Under the pieces are notes generated by a model that was not told the origin of the DNA, ran no database searches, and worked only from the letters and a program-made list of their open reading frames with translations. From Sistotremastrum niveocremeum HHB9708 (Eukaryota > Basidiomycota > Agaricomycetes > Sistotremastrales > Sistotremastraceae), in assembly GCA_001630475.1 (NCBI GenBank), contig KV419442.1:172727-236726 (forward strand): a stretch of 64,000 bases of DNA, written 5' to 3'. Of the stretch, positions 3,165 through 39,525 are shown piece by piece (the stretch's first letter is position 1; each line of letters starts with the position of its first letter). A program made the translations under genes and the position numbers.

Positions 3165-4202
3165 TCACCAGATCACACGCGTTCGACGGAAAACGTAGTC
3201 TAACGCCGAACACACAAAGCACTTATTCTCCCGATCTGTACCATCCGCACGATATCGATGGCGAGGGGTTTGATGCGAAGGGAAGCAATCAGGGGGCAAG
3301 GTTCGTTTGCATCCCTGACATTGGACGGGATTAATGTGTGCGGTCTTGTCGAGGATTTGAAGAGGGAGGAGGGGGTGCCTGACGAATCTGTCGTCTGAAG
3401 AGGGGCGCGAGTCGAGGTGGAGAGTGATGTATTCTTCGGATTCTTGGGTGAGTGATGGGCGGATGTAACCCATTTTCTTGAAATGCGAGTAGAGGGAATC
3501 GATATAGGAGATGTCGCGAGCTGCGTAGGATAACTGCGAGGCGGTGAGCGGTCTTGAAAGCCACTTTGAGTGATCTAAAAATCATCAGAGACATATAAGG
3601 ATAAAAAGAGCTCGCATATTCGTACCAGGTGAAGCTTGAGAGCCGGAATAAACGGTAGTGAAGTCGTGCTCTCGGACACAAGCTTCGAGGCCGCAAACCT
3701 TATGGATACGAGTATACCGAGAACGACGATCAGGTCGATTGACCTCATCCCTCTTCAGGTATCTGCCAAGGCGCTGGAGTTGCTCTCGCTGACCCTCCCC
3801 TCGGAGAGAACGAGAAGTAATGTCAGCTAACTGAAGATCGATGACATTCTTCAACTCGACTCCTTCGCCGTGCCATAGCTCGCTGAAATCTTGACGTCCG
3901 TCGAAGACGACCTTCAGAACTGACGGATCTTCGAGGAAGTCGTAGAGAGGACGGAGTTCAGCTTTGGTGAAGGCGAGTACGTCGATCAGGAAGATGGGGT
4001 GGTTTGGTTCTGTGCATGGCTTGGATGTGGAGAGGGACGAGGCGATTCCGAGGTTCAGAAGCGAGAGTTGGCCGCCGATGCTTCCGAGATCCTTGGCCTC
4101 GCAGTCAAGGATGAGAGTCGGAGAGTCGGTCAGAGATTCGATGACTTCCTCGAGAAGTGAATTGTCATCGCAGAGTAGATATTCTGACTTAATGGATGGC
4201 AT
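3165..4202 (-). CDS. 3'-5' exonuclease, DEDD superfamily (paralogue EXO1)
   Basis: Two exons (4202-3626 and 3574-3165), joined in phase 1, give about 328 residues. The N-terminal domain is a DnaQ/RNase D-like 3'-5' exonuclease. Exo I is LDCEAKD, Exo II lies around VFDGRQDFSEL, and Exo III is YAARDISYIDSLY, the Y-x3-D form (DEDDy). The C-terminus carries two Cys pairs, CQGC and CFVC, which look like a small zinc site. The family trims nucleic acids from the 3' end in a metal-dependent way; the substrate is unknown. The start at 4202 (MPSIKSEYLLCDD) aligns with the starts of the two paralogues at 24.6 and 27.1 kb, though an in-frame ATG also exists at 4259. It lies between family genes A and B and is convergent with A. 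Confidence 0.85.
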
Positions 4203-4353
4203 TGTGGGCAGTGCGGAATGAGGTCGTTCTTCGACGCTCTTTAAGTACAGCGTAGTCACTCGCGTGTGGCGTCAGCGGGACCTGGATCTCACTATTGGAT
4301 GATAAGACAAGCTTCTTGAGAGAGACGTCCTTTCCTTTGCAGGTATACTGTTG

Positions 4354-20960: not shown

Positions 20961-22219
20961 AAGGCGATTAGCAGTCTTGGAAGCACTGATGCTCGCTACT
21001 ATTTTAACTGCGATGGCCGTACTCTGTTAGTCGATTTTTCAGCAGACCAGGCGATAAAAATGATATGATTAATATTGAGCATTGTGCACTTCGATCTGCA
21101 TTTGAGCGAGCATTCGCCCCTTCGGTTCGACCGAGTAATTTTAACGAGTAGAGAACTTAGTAATGCTCATTGCACATTTCTTGAGACAATAGATGAAGTT
21201 CCATTCGCAAGAAGGCAGTTTTACGGAATGCAGTCCTGACATGTCATCAGTCTGAGCCATTTTTCGCTGATACCTGGGACGATGAGAGTGAAGATTAGAA
21301 AGCATATCAGAGAGGCTGATCATTGACGTTCCGATTGCTAGAATGTTCGTCTTTGAGACGCGCCAAGATTGTGGATTATTTGAAGCGGAAGGGAGCGGGA
21401 TCAATTTCTTTCCTTTTCTCTCGGAAGAGGAAGGTTGGGCGACGGAACAGTTGTTGGGGTCGGAGAAGCAAGATCAAGAGTCGCGTCAGCTTATTTCTAA
21501 TTGCCGAATGCGTCGATCTGAACACAGGAACACCAAGTGAATCTCGGAACGCCTCAGTTCGCGTGTTTTGCACCGGGTAGAAAAACCGAATTTTTGGTTA
21601 CAGTTAATGAATCGGAATGATAGACGAAACCGTGGTTCACAAGAGATGCCGTAGCGGCATGAATGGTGTAAACTTAGTTTTGTATTTTACTTTATGGATT
21701 TCGGTCATCGTGGTTGGTTACAAGGCAATTTTTAAACTCCGACCACAGTCCTGCGGAAGCATCGACGCTCAATCAACGCTGAACGCCACAACGGCTACCA
21801 CATTCACGTCTCCAGTGATGAGGAATACGGCTCCACACTGTCAACCTTGAGAAAAGCTTAGCTTCACGAAAAAGATGTGTCTACAAGCCTCGCGATTTCG
21901 GCCTGCGGAGCCTGCGAACGAAGCTCGCTGTGGGAGTTGAGCCGGAATTCCATCTATGGGAAACAAGAATCGTTGATTTGAGTGGCGAACGTGCGTCGGC
22001 GCGCCTCATGGATGAGGGAGTGTATCCCGCCGTGCGCCAAGGTTCTCTCATCGTTGCCTTTGCTTGTGGAAATTTATCTCAGAGGGGGAATTTGACGATG
22101 ACCTTGATGTTTTGGCAGATCTGTGAAGGTCTTGGTGCTTTGGCTTGGCCGGAAATATGATGAACGTGCGTTATTTTTGCTGTGAGGTTGAATGCCGACG
22201 ATGCTGAGGACGCGTAGGT
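20961..22219. other. Gene-poor stretch between the A-F block and the repeat-protein gene
   Basis: Several short frames look weakly protein-like (around 21343-21540 and 21930-22160), but none has a consistent exon chain or known motif. They may be gene debris. Confidence 0.45.
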
Positions 22220-22313: not shown

Positions 22314-24125
22314 ATGAAGTTTGATAATCAGTTCACTCTGTTCGTCATCTCTGCTGTCCTGAGTTGCGCTTCCGCGTCGCCGGTGGGTTTATTCGTATCT
22401 TCACGAAGAACTATGTTCCTCAAACAGATATCGATACTACAGGTTCCTACCGCAGAGATCGTCGCTGCGGTGAGCTTCATCTTCAATTTACGCGTCTGAA
22501 TTGAAATTTATCTTGTTTCTTTAGGCGGATTTGCCTCATGGCAGAGTTGTTCGTGACATCGTCGAAGTCGGGCTGGCTCGCCGAGATGTGAGCTTTCCTT
22601 AATTTTAGTTTTGTTTTCTTAATTTCATACTTCGACCATAGGCTCGTCATGGCGGTGACGATCACGGAGGTGATAAAGACCACGACCGTCGCTCTGCGAG
22701 ACATGGTCACGGCGGTGATGATGATGGGGATCATGATAGAGACCACGACCGACGTTCAGCTAGACATGGTGGCGATGATGACGGAGGTCATGACAAAGAT
22801 CATGATAGGTGTGTTCATTCGTCCCCTTGGAATGATCAAACATTTATATTTATATAACAGACGCTCTGCTCGCCATGGTGGCGACGACCGCGGAGGAGAC
22901 AGAGATGGTGATAGGGATGGCGATAGAGCCGCAGAAAGACACGGTGGAGATGACCGTGGAGGAGACAAAGACCACGATCGTCGTTCCGCTAGACACGGTG
23001 GAGACGATGCTGGTGGCCATGATAGGGACCACGACCGAAGATCTGCTCGCCATGGAGGAGACGATGATGGAGGTCATGACAGGGACCACGACAGGTGTGT
23101 AGACATTATTATGTTAACGATATCATACTCACATCGATATGTCAGACGTTCTGCCAGACATGGCGGCGATGACGATGGTGGTCATGATAGGGATCATGAC
23201 AGACGTGTAGCGAAGCACGGGGGTGACGACCACGGCGATAGGGACCACGATAGACGCTCCGCCCGACATGGAGGAGACGACGATGGCGGCCACGATAGGG
23301 ACCATGACAGGCAAGTCGAATTGTAATATAGATGACGTCATCAGGCTGATACTCGCCATATTTCAGACGTTCCGCTCGTCACGGAGGCGACGATGACGGT
23401 GGTCATGATAGGGATCATGATAGACGATCTGCTCGCCATGGTGGCGATGACGATGGTGGTCATGACAGGGACCACGATAGGTACAGAATATTTTCTATAA
23501 TTCATTTGACTGTGTTGACGATATGGTAGGCGTTCTGCGAGACATGGTGGTGACGATGATGGCGGTCACGACAAAGACCATGATAGGCGATCTGCCCGTC
23601 ACGGCGGAGACGATAACGGAGGAGATCGGGACCACGACAGGTACTTCAAAGTCAAACCTGCCTGGGAGATTATTTTATTGACGAAATAATAACTGTAGGC
23701 GCTCTGCCCGCCATGGTGGAGATGATGATGGAGGCCACGATAAAGATCATGACAGGCGTGCTGCTCGCCATGGTGGGGATGATGATGGAGGCCGACATGG
23801 AGGAGACGATCGCGACCACGATAGACGTTCAGCCCGCCATGGCGGAGACGATCGTGGCGGAGATAGGGACGGTGACAGAGATGAGGAGAGACATGGTGGA
23901 GATGATCGTGGTGGAGATAAAGATCATGACCGTCGTTCTGCGAGACATGGGGGAGATGATGATGGAGGTCATGATAGGGACCATGATAGACGTTCGGCTC
24001 GTCATGGAGGAGATGACGATGGAGGTCATGATAAGGACCATGACAGGCGCTTTGCGAGACATGGGGGTGATGATAATGGGGGAGACAGAGACCATGATCG
24101 TCGTTCCATCGCTGACCTCGACTAA
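22314..24125 (+). CDS. Secreted Asp/His-rich repeat protein, candidate kexin-processed peptide precursor
   Basis: Nine exons give about 458 residues: 22314-22382, 22443-22469, 22525-22587, 22642-22808, 22861-23094, 23146-23310, 23367-23480, 23530-23640 and 23699-24125. The N-terminus is a signal peptide (MKFDNQFTLFVISAVLSCAS). A short spacer follows with a dibasic site, ARR, at its end. The rest is about 21 copies of a 19-residue unit, RRSARHGGDDDGGHDRDHD. Each unit carries one Arg-Arg, a site for kexin (Kex2). Cleavage would release many near-identical 17-residue peptides. The units have no Cys and are rich in His and Asp, so metal binding is an alternative role. Introns 4-8 all fall in phase 2 inside the first Arg codon of an Arg-Arg pair, and exons 5-8 are multiples of three. 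This shows growth by exon and repeat duplication. One intron (23311-23366) is GC-AG. I know no named homologue. Confidence 0.82.
22642..24113 (+). repeat. Tandem array of 57-bp coding units
   Basis: About 21 units of roughly 57 bp encode the 19-residue repeat. Some units are altered: one with inserted Gly-Asp-Arg-Asp repeats (exon 5), a shortened one with AKHGGDDHGDRDHD (exon 6), and a partial internal duplication in exon 9. The units are broken into exons by five short introns of unrelated sequence. Confidence 0.85.
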
Positions 24126-24581
24126 AACCAAAACGAGACCGGTGAGTGCGTTCGGTTTATGTCTCCGAATCTGAGCTAATATCATCAGTTCAGATCCTGA
24201 GTATCTTTGATCGTATGGATAGCACTGTAGCTCTGTTGTAGCATTCTCGAACGTGTTTGTGGATAGTCGTATCGTGAATGATGAAAATATTCAAGTCGTT
24301 GCGAATTCCGGAATCCGATCTTGTTTGTTCCTGTTGGATCCACCTCGTGCTAATCGGATAAACGGAAAATAAACGGGGGTGTCTGGTGTCTCAAGACTGC
24401 TAGCGCTGTGGAGACCGCTATAAACTACCAAGACGCTTTACTTCTGAGTCGATCATTGCATCGTCTCACTGCAAATAAATATCACGCATTCCTCTTGCTT
24501 TGTTGAATTTATTACTGATCTAGATGTCAATAAGGAGTCTCGAAATTTTCGCAGATAGGAGAATCGGATGATCCGGCCACT
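24126..24581. other. Intergenic stretch before EXO2
   Basis: This holds the 3' flank of the repeat-protein gene and the promoter of EXO2. No gene was seen. Confidence 0.5.
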
Positions 24582-24588
24582 TATATAG
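24582..24588 (+). promoter_or_regulatory. TATA box of EXO2
   Basis: TATATAG lies about 36 bp before the start codon at 24624. A similar TATATGA lies at 27076-27082 before EXO3, supporting the chosen starts of both genes. Confidence 0.5.
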
Positions 24589-24623
24589 ACAGGCCGAGAA
24601 TTTCCCCATCCGACTATCTCACA

Positions 24624-25682
24624 ATGGCCTTGTCTTTCTACCACGACGATGCCTTCCTCCTCTGCGATAACCAACAGACCCTTCAGGGCGTCGTCGCAAC
24701 CTTGCGACGTGCTTCAGCTATCATTCTCGATTGTGAGGCTCAGGATATAGGCTATGTCGGTGGACAGTTGTCCGTTATCAGTCTCGGCGTTGCAGGATCA
24801 CTCCTGTCGTCCAAGCGTCGAGGTCGTCAGTACCACCCCGTTTTTCTCGTAGATGTCCTAGCGTTCTCTAGGCGTCAGCTTCGTTCCTTGTATGACATCC
24901 TCGAAGATGAGAACGTGACCAAAGTCGTCTTTGGTGGACGTCACGATTTCACCGAGTTGTATCATGGACAGGGGGTGTATATGAAGGGGGTTATAGACCT
25001 CCAGATTGCCGATGTCGTCTCTCGGGATATCCTCGAGGAAGATTTTGAAGATCAGATGGAGAGGCTTGGTGACCGCTACTTTGATGACGATGTCGATATT
25101 GATCGTTATGACAATATTCACCGTCTGAACAGTCTTGTTTCCTGTGTTGAAGAGCACGACGTTGATACGAGCCGCATTCCACATGAGTTGAAACCCTGTA
25201 CGTTGCCCTTATTTTTTTCATTCAGATCGTTCAACTGAATGACGTGGTCATTAGATCATTCCGGGAGATGGCTCCAGCGCCCTCTTTCCTTCGATCAGCT
25301 CATCTATGCCTCTGGCGACGTCCTCCTGATCGATTTGCTATACCGCTACTTCAGGAGCATGCATCTTCTCGAAGACGATATTTACGAGCAGAGCGCGAAA
25401 TATATATCCCTCAATATCGACGCGAGGGTCAATAAGAATGATGAATATTGGTGCCATGCACTCTTGCCGCTCGATATTATCTATGAAGCGGATGGAATTC
25501 CGATGACGTGCGACGGTTGTGGAAGGGAGATGATGTCTGGGAATTTTGCGAGGAGAGGTGGTAGAGGCAGAGGACGTCGTGAGGACAAGTGCGCGGTCTG
25601 TGTGATTATTGATTTTACTGGTAATTTCCATTTTCTTCGAGCGCTTCATCTTCTTACCATTTATCAAGGATACGAAGATTGA
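24624..25682 (+). CDS. 3'-5' exonuclease, DEDD superfamily (paralogue EXO2)
   Basis: Two exons (24624-25197 and 25255-25682), joined in phase 1 at the same place as in EXO1 and EXO3, give about 333 residues. Exo I is LDCEAQD, Exo II lies in VFGGRHDFTELYHG, and Exo III has become YASGDVLLIDLLY. It keeps the Tyr and Asp of DEDDy but with Ser-Gly between. The C-terminal Cys pairs are CDGC and CAVC, and the linker is Arg/Gly-rich (RRGGRGRGRR). The last residues (FLRALHLLTIYQGYED) differ from the paralogues. A small unrecognised 3' intron is possible. It is tandem with EXO3. Confidence 0.83.
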
Positions 25683-27075
25683 TCGTTCTTATTGATAAGA
25701 TGTTTGGAGGCGTTTTGAAGTTGACTGTGACACGTCTTCGACCGTACCGAATACATCGAGCTGGGTCGGCAGAGAACAAAACGAATCTTTGATGTCCTTA
25801 GTATTATTCATTATCAAAAGTTGGTGAAAAGGGGGAGACATAACGAGTGCTTTCATCGATGCGTACTACCTCTGTAGTGTCTGACAGCCATTGTCGTAGA
25901 CTCGTAGTTTCTGATGCGATGGACATGCCGAAGAAACGGCTTGAGACGGCATGATCGGAGTATCAAATCTGCCGAGATGCCAGACGATGTGAGCTTCCGA
26001 AATGCGACCTGAACGACTCACCGCTTCCACGCAGGAGAGAGATATCTTTTCTCAAGTCTTGCTTTGTTTTGCGTACCATTTTTCTGAGCTACACATCCCC
26101 TCGCCTCGTGATCTAAGCCTGTTCGAATGAGATATGGCTCCGCCTAGCCTCCCCACGGTGTTCCAGCTAATGACATGCCTCTTTCATTCGTGAGCGCTTA
26201 GCAAGCTCATCCAGGAGCAAAGCACTGAATGTAGTGAAGGTTTTGGTCGATTCTTTCGCTAGAATGAGGTGTCAGTGAAGGAATCCGGTAGTAGGACAGG
26301 AAGATCTATTGGACGATTCGGTACTCGTGTCGGTGCGCTACCAGATCTCAATTGGACGCGATCATCATTAACTCACTTGAAATATTAGAGATTGGCAGCG
26401 TCTTGATGGTTCGCAATCGCTCTGATCGACGCGATGTCCCGTTGATGGATTGAACTTCTCGACGAATTTGTGAGGTCGGTCATTGATGTATTATATGTTG
26501 AACGAGCTGACTCTTCCTCAAGCTCTTCCTAGTATTCTTGGATAAACCTGACACATCCCTATGTTTGTCTGGCATAGTCCCTTTCAAAATATTCCTGTAG
26601 GGCTTCAATCTTCTATCGTAAGATGACGACATGAACTCCAAATAGTAACTCTCAGAGTCTCAGGGAAAGCCTTCAGCGCGCCGTTAGAGATGGGTATGGC
26701 CGAATGATCCATCGACGGTCCGTGTTTAGCAGGGCTAAAGCTTTTAAACGAAGTCCACTCCGAAATCACAATACGATGCGTGATTTAGGAACGTGTATAC
26801 ATCCCTCGGCTGATCCGAAAATGCAATCTTAGCATTTTCGGTGTAGCCCATGACCTTCATGTGATCCAGATCCGCAAGGAACCCTGGAATAATGAAGGGG
26901 GTGGCGTGAATCCTGAGACAGTTACACAATTACGACCTTCGACCCCTCTCTCTGATTGAACGCCGCCCTTACATTCCCACACCACAAGCAACGCTGCCGG
27001 TTTCCTCGTGTTTGCTTATCAATTCAGGATCCGTGCGTTCAGGTTGTAGCAGATAGGAGTACTGGACCAGACCGC
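25683..27075. other. Gene-poor stretch between EXO2 and EXO3
   Basis: Only short frames on either strand, with no recognised motif. A minus frame at 26744-26929 is short and unsupported. The stretch includes the 5' flank of EXO3. Confidence 0.45.
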
Positions 27076-27123
27076 TATATGAAAGCCCCAAATTCTCGCC
27101 CATTCGAATCTTGCTACCACCCC

Positions 27124-28285
27124 ATGTCTTCTGATCACGACACCTATCTTCTCTGCGATACTACGAAAAAACTCAAACGCGTCGTCAAAGCGTTGAATCG
27201 TGCAGCAGCGATCATCCTAGATTGTGAAGCTCACAATATAGGCTATGTCGGTGGCCAGCTATCAATCATCAGCCTCGGGATTGCGGACTCACTTCCTTCA
27301 TCTGATCCTCGACTCCATCCATATCAACCAGTCTTCATAGTCGACGTTCTAGCGTTTTCGAAGGCCCAACTCCGTCCTTTTTACGATATACTCGAAGATG
27401 GAAGCATTGTTAAAGTTGTCTTTGGAGGACGTCATGATTTCAGTGAATTGTATCATGGACAGGGGGTTGATTTGCGGGGTGTTGTTGATTTGCAGATTGC
27501 GGATGTCGTTTCAAGAGAAGTGCGCGGTGAGGGATTTGAAGAACAGATGAGGAGGTTGGGTCAGTATGGGGATGACAGGGCGATTTGGGACTCTACGCTT
27601 CAAGCTCGATATGTTGGAGTTCATAGGCTTTGTGGGCTTGTTGCGTGTGTTGAAGAGCACGATATCGATACCAGCTGCATTCCGCATAAGTTGAAGCCTC
27701 GTAAGTGCCTTATCTTTCTGATATGATGATATACTGACGCTCAGTCGCTCACTGGCGCTGTTAGATCATTCGACGAAATGGCTGAAACGACCCCTTTCAG
27801 TCGATCAATTGATCTATGCCGCGGGCGATATCTTGCTCATCGACCTCCTCTACGACCATTTCACTATCGAGGGCTATATAGGCTCTGAGCTCGAAGAGCA
27901 GAGCGAAGACTATATATCGCTCCATCTGGCGGAAAGAGTGCCGAAGAATGATCCGTACTGGAGTCATGCGCTCTTGCCGCTCGAGATAATCAATCAAGCA
28001 GACGGCGTCCCGATGACGTGTCAGGGATGCCAAAGAGTCATGCCATCCGGATGCTTTGCGCTTGTCAAGAAAAGTCGGAAACGACGAGTCCGCGAAGACA
28101 AGTGCTTCGTCTGTTCGACCATCGATGCTGCTTGTCCTCCATCCAATTCTTCTTCTCAGAGTCACGGCTTGCGGGTTGTTCATCAGCCTGCGCCAGATAT
28201 TTGGAGACAGTTCGAGTTCGATCTGAGACGTGAGCTTGAACGCATGTTGATATCAAGGAGCTACCCGTATCAGTATTACCACTAA
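27124..28285 (+). CDS. 3'-5' exonuclease, DEDD superfamily (paralogue EXO3)
   Basis: Two exons join at a GTAAGT intron that begins about 27702 and ends in TTAG before 27767. Exo I is LDCEAHN, where the usual second Asp is Asn, as a neighbouring rather than a catalytic residue. Exo II lies in VFGGRHDFSELYHG, and Exo III is YAAGDILLIDLLY. The Cys pairs are CQGC and CFVC. The C-terminus is about 40 residues longer than in EXO1. The start MSSDHDTYLLCD at 27124 is preferred over an upstream in-frame start because it aligns with the paralogues and lies just below a TATA-like element. It is closest to EXO2. Confidence 0.84.
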
Positions 28286-35544: not shown

Positions 35545-38500
35545 TCACGCGTTCAACGTGGACTCCTCTACTTCGACATCCAACTCTAAATCCAAGATTG
35601 CGTGCCATGGATAAACTGGGAGCGGGCTCCCCCGATTGTGATTATCTGTACTCGACTCCTTCGACGACATGTTATCGGAGGATTGGTCCATGGGTGAGCC
35701 TGATGTAGCTTCATCCGGCGTTGATGGTATCGTTGGAGGTAATGGAGAGTGTGACTTGCGGGTGTGATGACAGGAGCCGAAAGGATTCATTTCATCGATC
35801 TTCGGTCGTTTCTCCGGGGCCTCTTCCCAGTCGACTGAGGCGTTGGGATCGCGAGGACGTGTTGATGGGGGAGCGGAGTGAACAGTTGGATTGCCGGATT
35901 CGTCGAGGAAGTGACGAAGGACCAGTGATGCCTTTCGAGCGATCGGCGAAAGAGAAGAAGCGCTCCTGATCACGAACCATAAGATCGAAGAACAGATAAG
36001 AGCAGAGGTAAAGACGTACAATAGTATCTGAGAGATAGCCAGGATACGTTCGGCGCGAGAAAGCAGTATCGTGTGCTTCCTGTTAACTTCCTTCACGAGA
36101 TGATTGTCCAGTAGAAGTATGACTGCTGCACGGAACGAATGCAGAAGGACGCCCCTGAGAGAAATATGATTAAACTTTCGATATACAGAAGCATGGAGAG
36201 ATAACATACCACCATCGACGACCGACGAATTCGATCTTGTTCATCTCCAACGTGAGGTCGATTATTTTCTCCGCAGCGTAAACGCTAACTTTCCGGGCAC
36301 GTGATTGACTGATCGCGCCATTGGGTTTTCCCTGAGGAACAGGAACGAGATATCGACGGTAGAGGGTGATGAGCCGGATGTTAAACGCTATCGTCACTGA
36401 TGAACGTTGCCACTATACAGGATCGCAATCAGTTTCGTTCAGGTTAGAAGAGACGAATGAACGTACGAATATTGCAGGATGCTGTCTTTCTAGTTCTTCG
36501 TCCCTCCACTTCAAATAAACAGGCAACTCCTCCCAGACAGCCCTCAGACCTTTCTCGAAATCGTCCACCGCAGCACGTTCCTTCGCAGAGTCTTTTGTCT
36601 CCATATGGATATCGAGTAGGTTCTCGAATCGGGCTATACCGATCCACATTCGGAGTATTGCGACTTCGTTGGGAATTTTACGAAGTGATCGATCGGAGTA
36701 TAGAGCTGACGAAGCTGTATCGAGATCGTCGAGGTTGATGTCGAGTGGCGTAGCGGTGTCGAAATGACGTGCGACGATGAGCGAGGAGCCGGGATATGGA
36801 AGGTGATGGGCGTAGGACCAGTCGAGAATCACGAGAGCATGCCAGATTCGACGGAGAGTCTCGCGATGACGGATTTGAGAGGGATCGGAGTTGTGTTCGT
36901 AGCCTAAGTGGGACAGTCGGAGGTTCTGGGCGAGTCGGGTGGCGAGGAGTGTTGTCATGCTGAAGTATTGCCATGACGGCGAAGATAAGGTGAGTGGGAT
37001 TGCGGAGAGGAGGATGCTTGAGAATAGGTCAGTGATTAGAGGAGAGCGATTCAAGTGATGTACGTACATGGCTTGAAGAACCTCTACCTCTCGCGTGGAT
37101 GCGAGATCCACGTGTGCAAGCTCATCCTGACATGAATGGAATAGTGCGATCGAGACTTGATGAAATTCGTCGAGCGAGGAGATGAGGCCCTTGAACTGAT
37201 ATCACTTAGTTAATGATGCCAAAGAAAAGGACTGAAGGGACATACCCGATTATCGAACATATCCATCGACGAATATCCGTGATACAGAACAATCCACAAA
37301 AGAGCCATCTGCGCATGACTCGGTTTTTGAACGTATCCATCCTTCCTCTCGCCATGAGCTCCGCTATCCGTTGATAGCCAGAGATTGTACTCGTCCGCAA
37401 TAGCTTGGATTTCTCTTCGGCCGACGATAGCGGCGAGACCGCACAACCCGCCGAATCTGACGAAGTCGAAGAAGAAGTTGATGGCGGATTGGCTGATGGA
37501 TGGAATGATATTTCGCAGTATGTGTGAGATGGAAGTGGGTGAGAGGGAGGTCGGGTGGGTTGAGTTAATGGAAATCGAGACCCCAAGTGAGCCACCGGGA
37601 TTAGCGCCGAGACCGAGATGTGATATCGTCGAGTCTGGGAAATGTGGTATAATACGAAGAGAACCGGTAAGTGATTGAGAGGAAGGAGAGTGAGATTGTG
37701 AACGAGATGGAACATGTGGTAGATGAGAAGGATGTATGAGAGACTGAGATTGGGACGAATGAGAATGAGAAGTGAACGGGTGAGGATACGGAGAAGACAA
37801 CGAGGACGACAGGGACGAATGATGATTGTTATTGTTCGGGTTCGTGTGTACACCATTCTGCGCGATCGAGATGTTACGTGCATTCGGAATATTATCTTCT
37901 TCATTTCCTCTACTTCGACTTCTATTTCCGCCTTCTTCGCCATTGCCATTGCCATTTCCAGGGCCATCACCGACGACGCCGCTAGCGTTGTTGTTGCTGA
38001 TGGTGCTGGTGATGTTGTGGCGGTTGTCCTTGCTGCTGTTGGGATTGGGGATGTCCAGAGTCCGGCGCAGACGCATCTCCCCCGTTCCCACCGCCCCCTC
38101 CACCTGATTCATCTCGGTCATTTGACCGTCGGGATGAATCATCGTGTGGTGGGGCTGATGGTGCTGGTGCGTCTGCGCCTCTCCTTTTTTTGAACTCCCG
38201 CTTTGCTGAGGCTGAGGCTGACCATCGCTCGGCTGACCTTCTGGACCTCCTTGTTGAGGTGGAGGTTGGGATTGCTGAGGAGGCTGTTGTTGTTGTTGCT
38301 GGGATTGTTGAGGAGAGGGCTGTTGTTGGGAGGGATGACCTTGGAGCGAAGGGTCAACGACCATCGGCTGGGGACCGCCTTGTTGATTCGGAGGCGGACC
38401 CTGTTGGTGAGGCGGACCGGGATGGCTCATCGGCGTAGCCCAGACGTAACCTCCGGGAGGAGGCATATGACCCGGAGGGATGTTGGGAGGAATAGGACCT

Positions 38501-39525
38501 TTCGGCGCAAGGAGATGGGGAGGTGGGGGTGCCATTCCGCCAACTAGAGGTTGGCCGGATGGACCGACGGCGATTGGCATCCCCGCGGGTTGGCCAGGAA
38601 GGGGAGGAGGGTATGCGAAAGATGGAATTGGTTGTCCGGTTAACTGAGTGATTACTGCCTCGAGGTTTTCGATTTTCGCTTTGAGATCATCGTACTCAGA
38701 ACGAGTGACGAATTTCTCAATCGGTTCGATGACATGCCATTTACATTTATCGTGTTCGCCACGCTGCAACGATAAGCAAATTAGGCGATGTAGGCGAATG
38801 AGCGAATAAAGTAGACCTACGCGAGAGCAAGGGCCACAGGGATTTTGGCGATCGCACTTTATTTTGCGGCGCTTACACTCTGGAATAAAGTTTAATCAGT
38901 ACTCACGATCATAAATGATAGCCAATGGAAATATACCTGTGCACGAAAGCGCTTGTCGCCTCCTTTTACGCTTCTGCGGTGCGTCAGGACTTCCATCACC
39001 CTGTCCACCCTCACCATCATCACTCTCGTTGCCCATGCCATCTGTACTACTCGGTGGCGCCATTGACGAAGGACCCGCCGACATCGGACCTCGACTACGG
39101 GGCGGAGGTGGGTTCTGCTGATGTTGCTGCGGATGTTGTTGGAATTGGGGAGGAGGAGGCGGTTGGAGATGAGCGGCTTGTTGATGGTGCGGTGGGTGTT
39201 GTGGATGCGACACCTGGGCACCAGGAGCAACTTGATGATGGACGCCGTATCCAACCGTAGAAGGATCAGCGTACTGCATCATCATATGCTGTTGAGGAGG
39301 GGGTTGTTGGGGGTGAGGATGGTGGGGGTTATGAGGACCATGGTTCTGTTGGTGAGGAGGCGGCGGATGGGGGGAATGTTGGGGATGATGTTGGGGAGGG
39401 GGTTGTTGGTAGAGTTGCGACGGATGGGGTTGGCCTTGTTGAGGTTGCGGCGGTGGGCCTCCTTGATTGCCTGGAGGACCGGGAGGACCGTTCTCGCCTG
39501 GGGGTTGGTTGGCGGAACCCGCCAT
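35545..39525 (-). CDS. Zn2Cys6 transcription factor with long Pro/Gln/His-rich N-terminus
   Basis: Exon 1 (39525-38937) encodes about 196 residues dominated by Pro, Gln and His, ending KRKRRRQALSCT. Exon 2 (38879-38821) and exon 3 complete the zinc cluster: CTECKRRKIKC, C-x5-CGPC, then SRRGEHDKC. A coiled-coil follows (YDDLKAKIENLEAVITQL) and then a second Pro/Gln-rich block and a Ser/His/Asn-rich block. The fungal regulatory domain runs from the ISQSAINFFFDF region through SWQYFSMTTLLATRLAQNLR and LRRIWHALVILDWSYAHH to about 36000. The C-terminus is Ser/Pro-rich with acidic ends. There are about seven introns, each restoring the frame where checked. Total length is about 1,150 residues. The regulon is unknown. 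Confidence 0.88.
38939..39500 (-). repeat. Pro/Gln/His low-complexity coding tract
   Basis: The minus strand is full of CCN and CAN triplets, giving runs such as QQPPPQHHPQHSPHPPPP. It is coding in the regulator above. The bias also creates long antisense frames on the plus strand that should not be taken as genes. Confidence 0.7.

What the first reader, a model, noticed from the sequence alone, without database searches (positions are those of the whole stretch)
22314..24125. Candidate kexin-processed repeat peptide precursor with Asp/His-rich units
A signal peptide is followed by about 21 units of RRSARHGGDDDGGHDRDHD, each with one Arg-Arg. This is the layout of fungal precursors cut by Kex2 into many small secreted peptides. 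The released peptide would be highly charged, with about 3 His and 6-7 Asp, unlike known pheromones or the Cys/Tyr-rich cyclic peptides. It could be a signal, a surface coat or a metal-binding peptide. I know of no described family with this unit.
Basis: partly seen in the sequence, partly recalled or inferred. Interest (0 to 1): 0.82.

Follow-up and report, generated by a model that had tools for sequence, protein, structure and literature searches.

The report
Fungal precursor of trimmed Asp/His peptides
This fungal gene encodes a secreted precursor that looks built to be cut into about twenty similar Asp/His-rich peptides, and two sister genes in the same genome encode different peptides with the same predicted Arg-His-Gly start, which hints at metal binding.

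Summary
The window gene (9 inferred exons, 458 aa, signal peptide) has 20 Arg-Arg sites bounding 19 fragments; two fragments hold two units each. By layout it is a KEX2-processed repeat protein (KEP), a described class. The unit itself was not found in the papers searched.

(1) After the Arg-Arg come X-Ala or X-Pro dipeptides, the Ste13 signature, so the predicted peptide is RHGGDDDGGHDRDHD (15 residues), not SARHGG... (17). (2) The same 34.7 Mb genome holds two paralogues with other cores, RHGDSHGRGHSHD and RHGDSGHRGDSHV; trimmed in silico, 53 of 54 fragments of the three genes begin [RK]HG. (3) GCCTGCGGANCCTGYGAA lies 410-422 bp upstream of all three, with no other exact copy in the genome.

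Units differ mostly at silent sites, so selection keeps the peptide. Kexin and dipeptidyl-peptidase loci are present; no UstYa match lies near the genes.

Function is inferred. I favour metal binding: an N-terminal Xaa-His is a known strong Cu(II) site, and the His at position 2 is the one kept in nearly every copy. A receptor signal is the main rival. No transcript, peptide or metal data were available.

The parts
22314..24125 (+). KEP gene: exons 22314-22382, 22443-22469, 22525-22587, 22642-22808, 22861-23094, 23146-23310, 23367-23480, 23530-23640, 23699-24125; 458 aa
   Evidence: splicing gives one open frame ending in a stop; introns 49-60 nt, seven GT-AG and one GC-AG
22314..22382 (+). 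exon 1: signal peptide, MKFDNQFTLFVISAVLSCASASP
   Evidence: hydropathy peak at residue 8 (TLFVISAVL, 2.62), nothing above 1.41 after residue 25; no dedicated signal-peptide predictor was run
22443..22584 (+). exon 2, intron 2 and nearly all of exon 3: pro-region ending in the first dibasic site (...VGLARR)
   Evidence: the leader aligns with both paralogues, whose three introns lie at comparable places
22585..24104 (+). repeat array: 19 Arg-Arg-bounded fragments, commonest SARHGGDDDGGHDRDHDRR, interrupted by introns 3-8
22809..22860 (+). intron 4, first of five introns placed in the first Arg codon of an Arg-Arg pair (phase 2)
23095..23145 (+). intron 5, phase 2, same place in the unit; 51 nt without an in-frame stop, so retention would keep the frame
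23311..23366 (+). intron 6, phase 2, same place; GC-AG
23481..23529 (+). intron 7, phase 2, same place
23641..23698 (+). intron 8, phase 2, same place
24105..24125 (+). C-terminal tail SIADLD and stop, right after the last Arg-Arg; paralogues end GIADID and GLLD
21901..21918 (+). upstream element GCCTGCGGAGCCTGCGAA, 413 bp before the ATG; shared by the two paralogues at 410 and 422 bp
   Evidence: three-way score 50 against a maximum of 40 in 100 shuffles; 3 exact matches in 34.7 Mb, one upstream of each family gene
22035..22091 (+). 57-bp upstream block shared with the C10 paralogue only
   Evidence: local score 59 against a maximum of 32 in 300 shuffles

Best explanation
The gene encodes a KEX2-processed repeat protein. 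Proposed steps, all inferred from sequence: (1) the signal peptide sends it into the secretory pathway (about 0.95 likely); (2) kexin cuts after each Arg-Arg (about 0.9); (3) a carboxypeptidase of the Kex1 kind removes the C-terminal Arg-Arg (about 0.8); (4) a Ste13-type dipeptidyl aminopeptidase removes the leading X-Ala (about 0.8); (5) up to 19 linear, uncyclised peptides are released: six RHGGDDDGGHDRDHD, four with Lys for one Arg, and nine other variants of 13-36 residues. Two paralogues would release RHGDSHGRGHSHD and RHGDSGHRGDSHV and their variants from the same layout, with a shared upstream element. The function I commit to is extracellular metal binding (about 0.35). Trimming would expose an N-terminal Arg-His, a known type of high-affinity Cu(II) site, next to a flexible chain of His, Asp and Gly that could hold further Cu, Zn or other ions. 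The peptide would then act as a secreted chelator or buffer.
For: Precursor: frame, leader; 20 RR sites; 53 of 54 dibasic-bounded fragments of the three genes begin [RK]HG once X-Ala/X-Pro dipeptides are stripped (52 RHG, 1 KHG); of 59 [RK]HG, 53 follow a dibasic site within 8 residues, and all 53 spacers consist only of X-A/X-P pairs, including SPVA, EALA and APSA. Selection on the peptide: (pN/pS 0.034, 0.133 and 0.150 in the three genes; non-silent fraction 0.110 in the window gene against a mean of 0.782 for random mutation). Enzymes: P-domain at two loci that also hold S8 hits; a frame of one of them matches yeast Kexin structures, E 5e-72; one DPP locus; several serine carboxypeptidase loci; Kex1 not singled out. 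Linear peptide: (53 UstYa matches, none on contigs C49 or C50, on C10 only some 520 kb from the paralogue). Metal: a passage of PMC8640992 gives log K 12.5-13 for Cu(II) on N-terminal Xaa-His at pH 7.4 and says that Cu(II) activates alpha-factor. Inner His vary from copy to copy; one copy in the C50 gene keeps only the His at position 2.
Against: No RNA, peptide or metal data. Ste13 trimming is predicted, not observed; without it His would sit at position 4 and the copper argument weakens. RHG may be kept for protease access or receptor recognition. At acid pH His would be largely protonated. No metal-linked gene was recognised among the 20 neighbouring frames scanned, 10 of which matched no family. 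The Xaa-His idea was formed after seeing the data. The tail after the last dibasic site and one C10 fragment (SVVERSP...) do not follow the X-A/X-P rule.
Confidence: 0.7

Rival explanations
1. A receptor-detected signal: the three genes release related linear peptides sensed by a GPCR or other receptor, as alpha-pheromones are.
For: The layout of Kex2 sites plus X-A/X-P spacers is that of alpha-pheromone precursors (passages of PMC6339444). The N-terminus RHG is constant while cores diverge between paralogues. Silent-site divergence shows that the peptide is conserved.
Against: The commonest trimmed cores hold no aromatic, Cys or large hydrophobic residue apart from the C-terminal Val of the C50 peptide. 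The STE2 search of the own genome gave no hit, but no control genome rang either, so that is not evidence of absence.
Confidence: 0.3
2. A cell-surface or matrix polyampholyte that stays whole or is only partly cut; the Arg-Arg pairs are just part of a charged repeat.
For: The array is extremely hydrophilic; two fragments hold a second unit without a dibasic site before it.
Against: The spacer rule (53 of 53) would have no meaning for an uncut protein. Kexin loci are present. Peptides of other KEPs, some with X-A/X-P motifs, were detected in Coprinopsis and Pleurotus (PMC9769878, section 4 parts 1-2 of 3).
Confidence: 0.12
3. An antimicrobial or effector peptide family that acts on other organisms.
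For: Six KEP knockouts in Coprinopsis showed no axenic phenotype and the authors propose roles in biotic interactions (PMC9769878). The tail SIADLD after Arg recalls RSIDELD of the His/Ala-rich DELD proteins of a root endophyte (PMC3192844 passages).
Against: The commonest window peptide has a charge of about -4 at pH 7 and no amphipathic character. The Coprinopsis authors saw no antibacterial activity for their peptides. The tail match is 5 of 7 here and weaker in the paralogues; the only other pattern match in the genome has a stop codon inside the motif.
Confidence: 0.15
4. A cyclic RiPP (dikaritin) precursor modified by UstYa-type enzymes.
For: The genome has 53 UstYa matches, so the enzyme family exists in the organism.
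Against: No UstYa match on C49 or C50 and none within 500 kb on C10 (the tool scores only its best candidates); the commonest cores have no Tyr, Trp or Cys.
Confidence: 0.04

Closest known systems
KEX2-processed repeat proteins (KEPs) of fungi
   Same: Signal peptide, tandem near-identical units, dibasic kexin sites between units, X-A/X-P Ste13 motif in some members
   Different: Asp/His/Gly-rich core; no such unit in the parts of the KEP papers that I saw (abstracts, named sections, passages)
Ascomycete alpha-pheromone precursors (alpha-factor)
   Same: Kex2, Kex1 and Ste13 layout; mature alpha-factor also begins Xaa-His (its sequence is recalled; its activation by Cu(II) is stated in a passage of PMC8640992)
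   Different: Core unrelated; no STE2 hit in this genome (uninformative control)
Dikaritin / ustiloxin-type RiPP precursors
   Same: Kex2-cut repeat precursor
   Different: No linked UstYa match and no Tyr/Trp/Cys in the commonest cores
DELD proteins of Serendipita (Piriformospora) indica
   Same: Secreted, His-rich, C-terminus like RSI..LD; a paper cited with the family has metal ion homeostasis in its title (reference seen, paper not read)
   Different: DELDs are 101-135 aa with regular His and Ala (PMC3192844 passages); here 458 aa, Asp-rich, kexin-site repeats

Membership tests
KEP (KEX2-processed repeat protein) | N-terminal signal peptide | tested here: met
   (hydropathy only; no dedicated predictor run)
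KEP (KEX2-processed repeat protein) | Repeated, nearly identical sequences | tested here: met
KEP (KEX2-processed repeat protein) | Kex2 dibasic sites separating the repeats | tested here: met
   20 RR sites, 19 fragments; 2 fragments hold two units
KEP (KEX2-processed repeat protein) | Peptides actually released | not testable with these tools
   needs mass spectrometry
alpha-pheromone precursor | X-A/X-P dipeptides after the Kex2 sites | tested here: met
   19 of 19 window fragments, 53 of 54 in the three genes; the C-terminal tails do not have it
alpha-pheromone precursor | Ste2-type receptor in the genome | tested here: inconclusive
   no hit, but no control genome rang
alpha-pheromone precursor | Conserved alpha-pheromone core | tested here: not met
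   by eye: cores against the Cys/Trp features given in PMC6339444 passages
Dikaritin (ustiloxin-type RiPP) | UstYa (DUF3328) gene beside the precursor | tested here: not met
   53 matches listed, none on C49 or C50; C10 matches at 277-279 kb, paralogue at 803 kb
DELD effector | C-terminal RSIDELD | tested here: not met
   RSIADLD, 5 of 7; paralogues weaker
DELD effector | 101-135 aa, His/Ala-rich | tested here: not met
   458 aa, His 12.4%, Ala 7.0%, Asp 27.9%

The most novel reading that the evidence does not exclude
A small family of secreted fungal metallophore peptides made by the alpha-pheromone processing route, in which Ste13 trimming creates an N-terminal Arg-His copper site on nearly every copy. 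One transcript would thus give about twenty metal ligands, with paralogues tuned by Asp, Ser or extra His for different metals or pH.
Probability: 0.22. Interest if true: 0.75.

Novelty: new member of a known kind. Interest (0 to 1): 0.5.

Why it matters
KEPs are numerous (7878 in the survey PMC7329392, abstract) and their functions are largely unknown (PMC9769878, abstract); six deleted in Coprinopsis gave no axenic phenotype. Here three paralogues in one genome show which part of the peptide is held fixed (the trimmed N-terminus RHG) and which is free to change. That gives a concrete, cheap test: do the synthetic peptides bind Cu(II), and is binding lost without Ste13 trimming? If yes, a pheromone-processing pathway would be shown to make metal ligands.

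Tried and rejected
DELD membership: the RSI..LD stop pattern matched this gene and one other place in the own genome, which has a stop codon inside the motif; membership rejected, resemblance of the tail kept as a lead. Dikaritin: no linked UstYa match. Pfam: no family for the 458-aa protein at E up to 1. PDB: no match for three units at E up to 1. Viral and prokaryotic collections: 27 and 592 pattern hits but no relative by tblastn; no fungal collection was on hand, so distribution in other fungi is untested. Upstream 800 bp as a DNA query found only itself; the shared element came from direct comparison. The element with up to 2 mismatches has 15 matches against 11 for the reversed control, so the inexact ones are no more than chance; by eye, the 12 inexact ones have no KEP-like frame in the 1.5 kb downstream. 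Under both scorings the window-C50 pair does not exceed the best shuffle; the C10-C50 pair does so in one scoring only (31 against 29). Whether the five array introns are copies of one intron: pair 5-6 scores z 3.14, pairs 5-7 and 6-7 1.87, the other seven array pairs between -1.27 and 0.37 (28 pairs in all, where introns 1-4 and 1-5 also exceed 2): weak, not settled. In one search fragments of non-standard length were dropped (11 of 19, 12 of 14 and 18 of 21 kept). Neighbour scan: 14 of the 31 window frames picked and 6 frames beside the paralogues were scanned. Literature: unit strings, 0 papers; KEX2 with histidine-rich and zinc, 1 paper, listing only, not opened; copper-binding peptide terms, 93 papers, 10 listed, none followed for this; alpha-factor with copper, 1 paper, listing only. 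The PF00450 search could not single out Kex1. A C24 match at E 0.19 was not followed. The taxon was not determined.

Full report
Observation. Reading 22314-24125 (+) with eight introns removed gives a single frame of 458 codons and a stop. The introns are 49-60 nt; seven are GT-AG and one (23311-23366) is GC-AG. The protein starts with a signal-peptide-like leader (MKFDNQFTLFVISAVLSCASA; hydropathy peak at residue 8), then a short pro-region ending in LARR, then the array, then SIADLD. There are 20 Arg-Arg pairs bounding 19 fragments. Six are exactly SARHGGDDDGGHDRDHDRR, four differ only by Lys for Arg, and two hold two units without an Arg-Arg between them. So 'about 21 units' is right, 'each with one Arg-Arg' nearly so.

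The peptide is under selection. Among the 11 fragments of standard length (the other 8 of 19 were left out), 55 pairs show pS 0.856 and pN 0.029. Twenty-one pairs are identical in protein and none of these in DNA; 11% of differences are non-silent against a mean of 78% under random mutation (lowest of 500 simulations 42%). Silent sites are near or past saturation, so I infer that the array is not a recent expansion. In the paralogues the constraint is looser (pN 0.106 and 0.114).

Relatives. No fungal collection outside the own genome was on hand. Searching the own genome (G000, 34.7 Mb, 111 contigs; the window is C49:172727-236726) with the protein found two paralogues: C10 near 803 kb (-) and C50 near 56-57 kb (+). 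Searches with each paralogue found no clear further member (a match on C24 at E 0.19 was not followed). Their inferred proteins have 329 and 444 aa and the leaders align. Each has three leader introns at places comparable with introns 1-3 of the window gene. Units are SARHGDSHGRGHSHDRR and SARHGDSGHRGDSHVRR. Neither paralogue has an intron within its array; the window gene has five, all phase 2 in the first Arg codon of an Arg-Arg pair.

The Ste13 signature. In the three genes together [RK]HG occurs 59 times. In 53 cases a dibasic site lies within the 8 residues before it, and in all 53 the spacer consists only of X-Ala or X-Pro dipeptides, also when it is four residues long (EALA, SPVA, APSA). 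Taken without that selection, 53 of 54 dibasic-bounded fragments begin with [RK]HG after stripping such dipeptides; the exception is SVVERSPRHGD... in the C10 gene, and the tails after the last site (SIADLD, GIADID, GLLD) do not fit either. PMC6339444 gives X-A and X-P as the Ste13 motif (passages). Vogt and co-workers saw such dipeptides removed from a Coprinopsis KEP expressed in Pichia, and Pleurotus peptides that probably result from Ste13 (PMC9769878; section 4 parts 1-2 of 3 and the discussion). The expected main product here is therefore RHGGDDDGGHDRDHD.

Enzymes. P-domain hits at C44 and C31 lie beside S8 protease hits. A C44 frame matches yeast Kexin structures at E 5e-72. DPPIV_N hits lie at one locus, on C10, and a frame downstream in it matches DPP4 structures. 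Several serine carboxypeptidase loci exist; Kex1 was not singled out. UstYa has 53 matches, none on C49 or C50, and those on C10 lie about 520 kb from the paralogue. This speaks for a linear peptide.

Shared upstream element. Comparing 700 bp before each ATG, the best three-way 18-mer is GCCTGCGGANCCTGYGAA at 413, 410 and 422 bp upstream; score 50 against a maximum of 40 in 100 shuffles. Exact matches in the genome are these three only. The pattern was read from the three sequences, so their matching is by construction; the absence of others is the new information. With up to 2 mismatches there are 15 matches against 11 for the reversed control, so inexact copies mean nothing. Pairwise, only the window-C10 comparison clearly exceeds shuffles (59 against 32; the other two pairs 31 against maxima of 34 and 29). 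I infer joint regulation; no expression data were seen.

Neighbours. PF01612 exonuclease-like frames lie at 3588-4271 (-), 24534-25235 (+) and 26956-27723 (+), with a match below the cut-off at 27722-28282 (+). Other frames gave a Zn2Cys6 motif, thiolase, importin and a putative Ig domain, and beside the C50 gene a PHM7 tail and a fungal kinase. Ten of the 20 frames scanned gave nothing (14 of 31 picked window frames and 6 beside the paralogues). None points to a function.

Function. Across the commonest cores Asp falls from 6 to 2 and inner His move, but position 2 of the trimmed peptide is His in 53 of 54 fragments; one copy in the C50 gene has no other His. [quoted passage not shown] Hence my reading: a secreted metal ligand whose main site is made by trimming. 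It is an inference after the fact; RHG could as well be a receptor determinant.

Known or new. By layout it is a KEP, a class with 7878 members in one survey (PMC7329392; abstract, section 6 part 1 of 2 and passages seen) and mostly unknown functions. The unit strings were not found in the paper library, but supplementary tables were out of reach. I call it a new member of a known kind.

Noticed in passing
window 22809-23698: Five introns sit at the same place (phase 2, first Arg of Arg-Arg) inside the array, while both paralogues have intronless arrays; either one gain followed by duplication of intron-bearing blocks or repeated gains at the same site.
   Followed up: partly
window 23311-23366: A GC-AG intron (donor GCAAGT) within the array.
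   Followed up: no
window 23095-23145: Intron 5 is 51 nt with no in-frame stop; retention would insert 17 residues and keep the frame.
   Followed up: no
window 3588-4271, 24534-25235, 26956-28282: Several 3'-5' exonuclease-like (PF01612) frames in one window, perhaps a local gene family (the 27722-28282 match is below the cut-off).
   Followed up: no
own genome: 53 UstYa (DUF3328) matches (exon by exon) on 15 contigs, several close together (C33, C52, C37, C43): the genome may be rich in cyclic-peptide chemistry unrelated to this gene.
   Followed up: no
window 24102-24125: C-terminal RSIADLD resembles the RSIDELD tail of His-rich DELD proteins (5 of 7).
   Followed up: partly
window 37213-38895 (-): Open frame of 561 aa with a Zn2Cys6-type motif near its start.
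   Followed up: no
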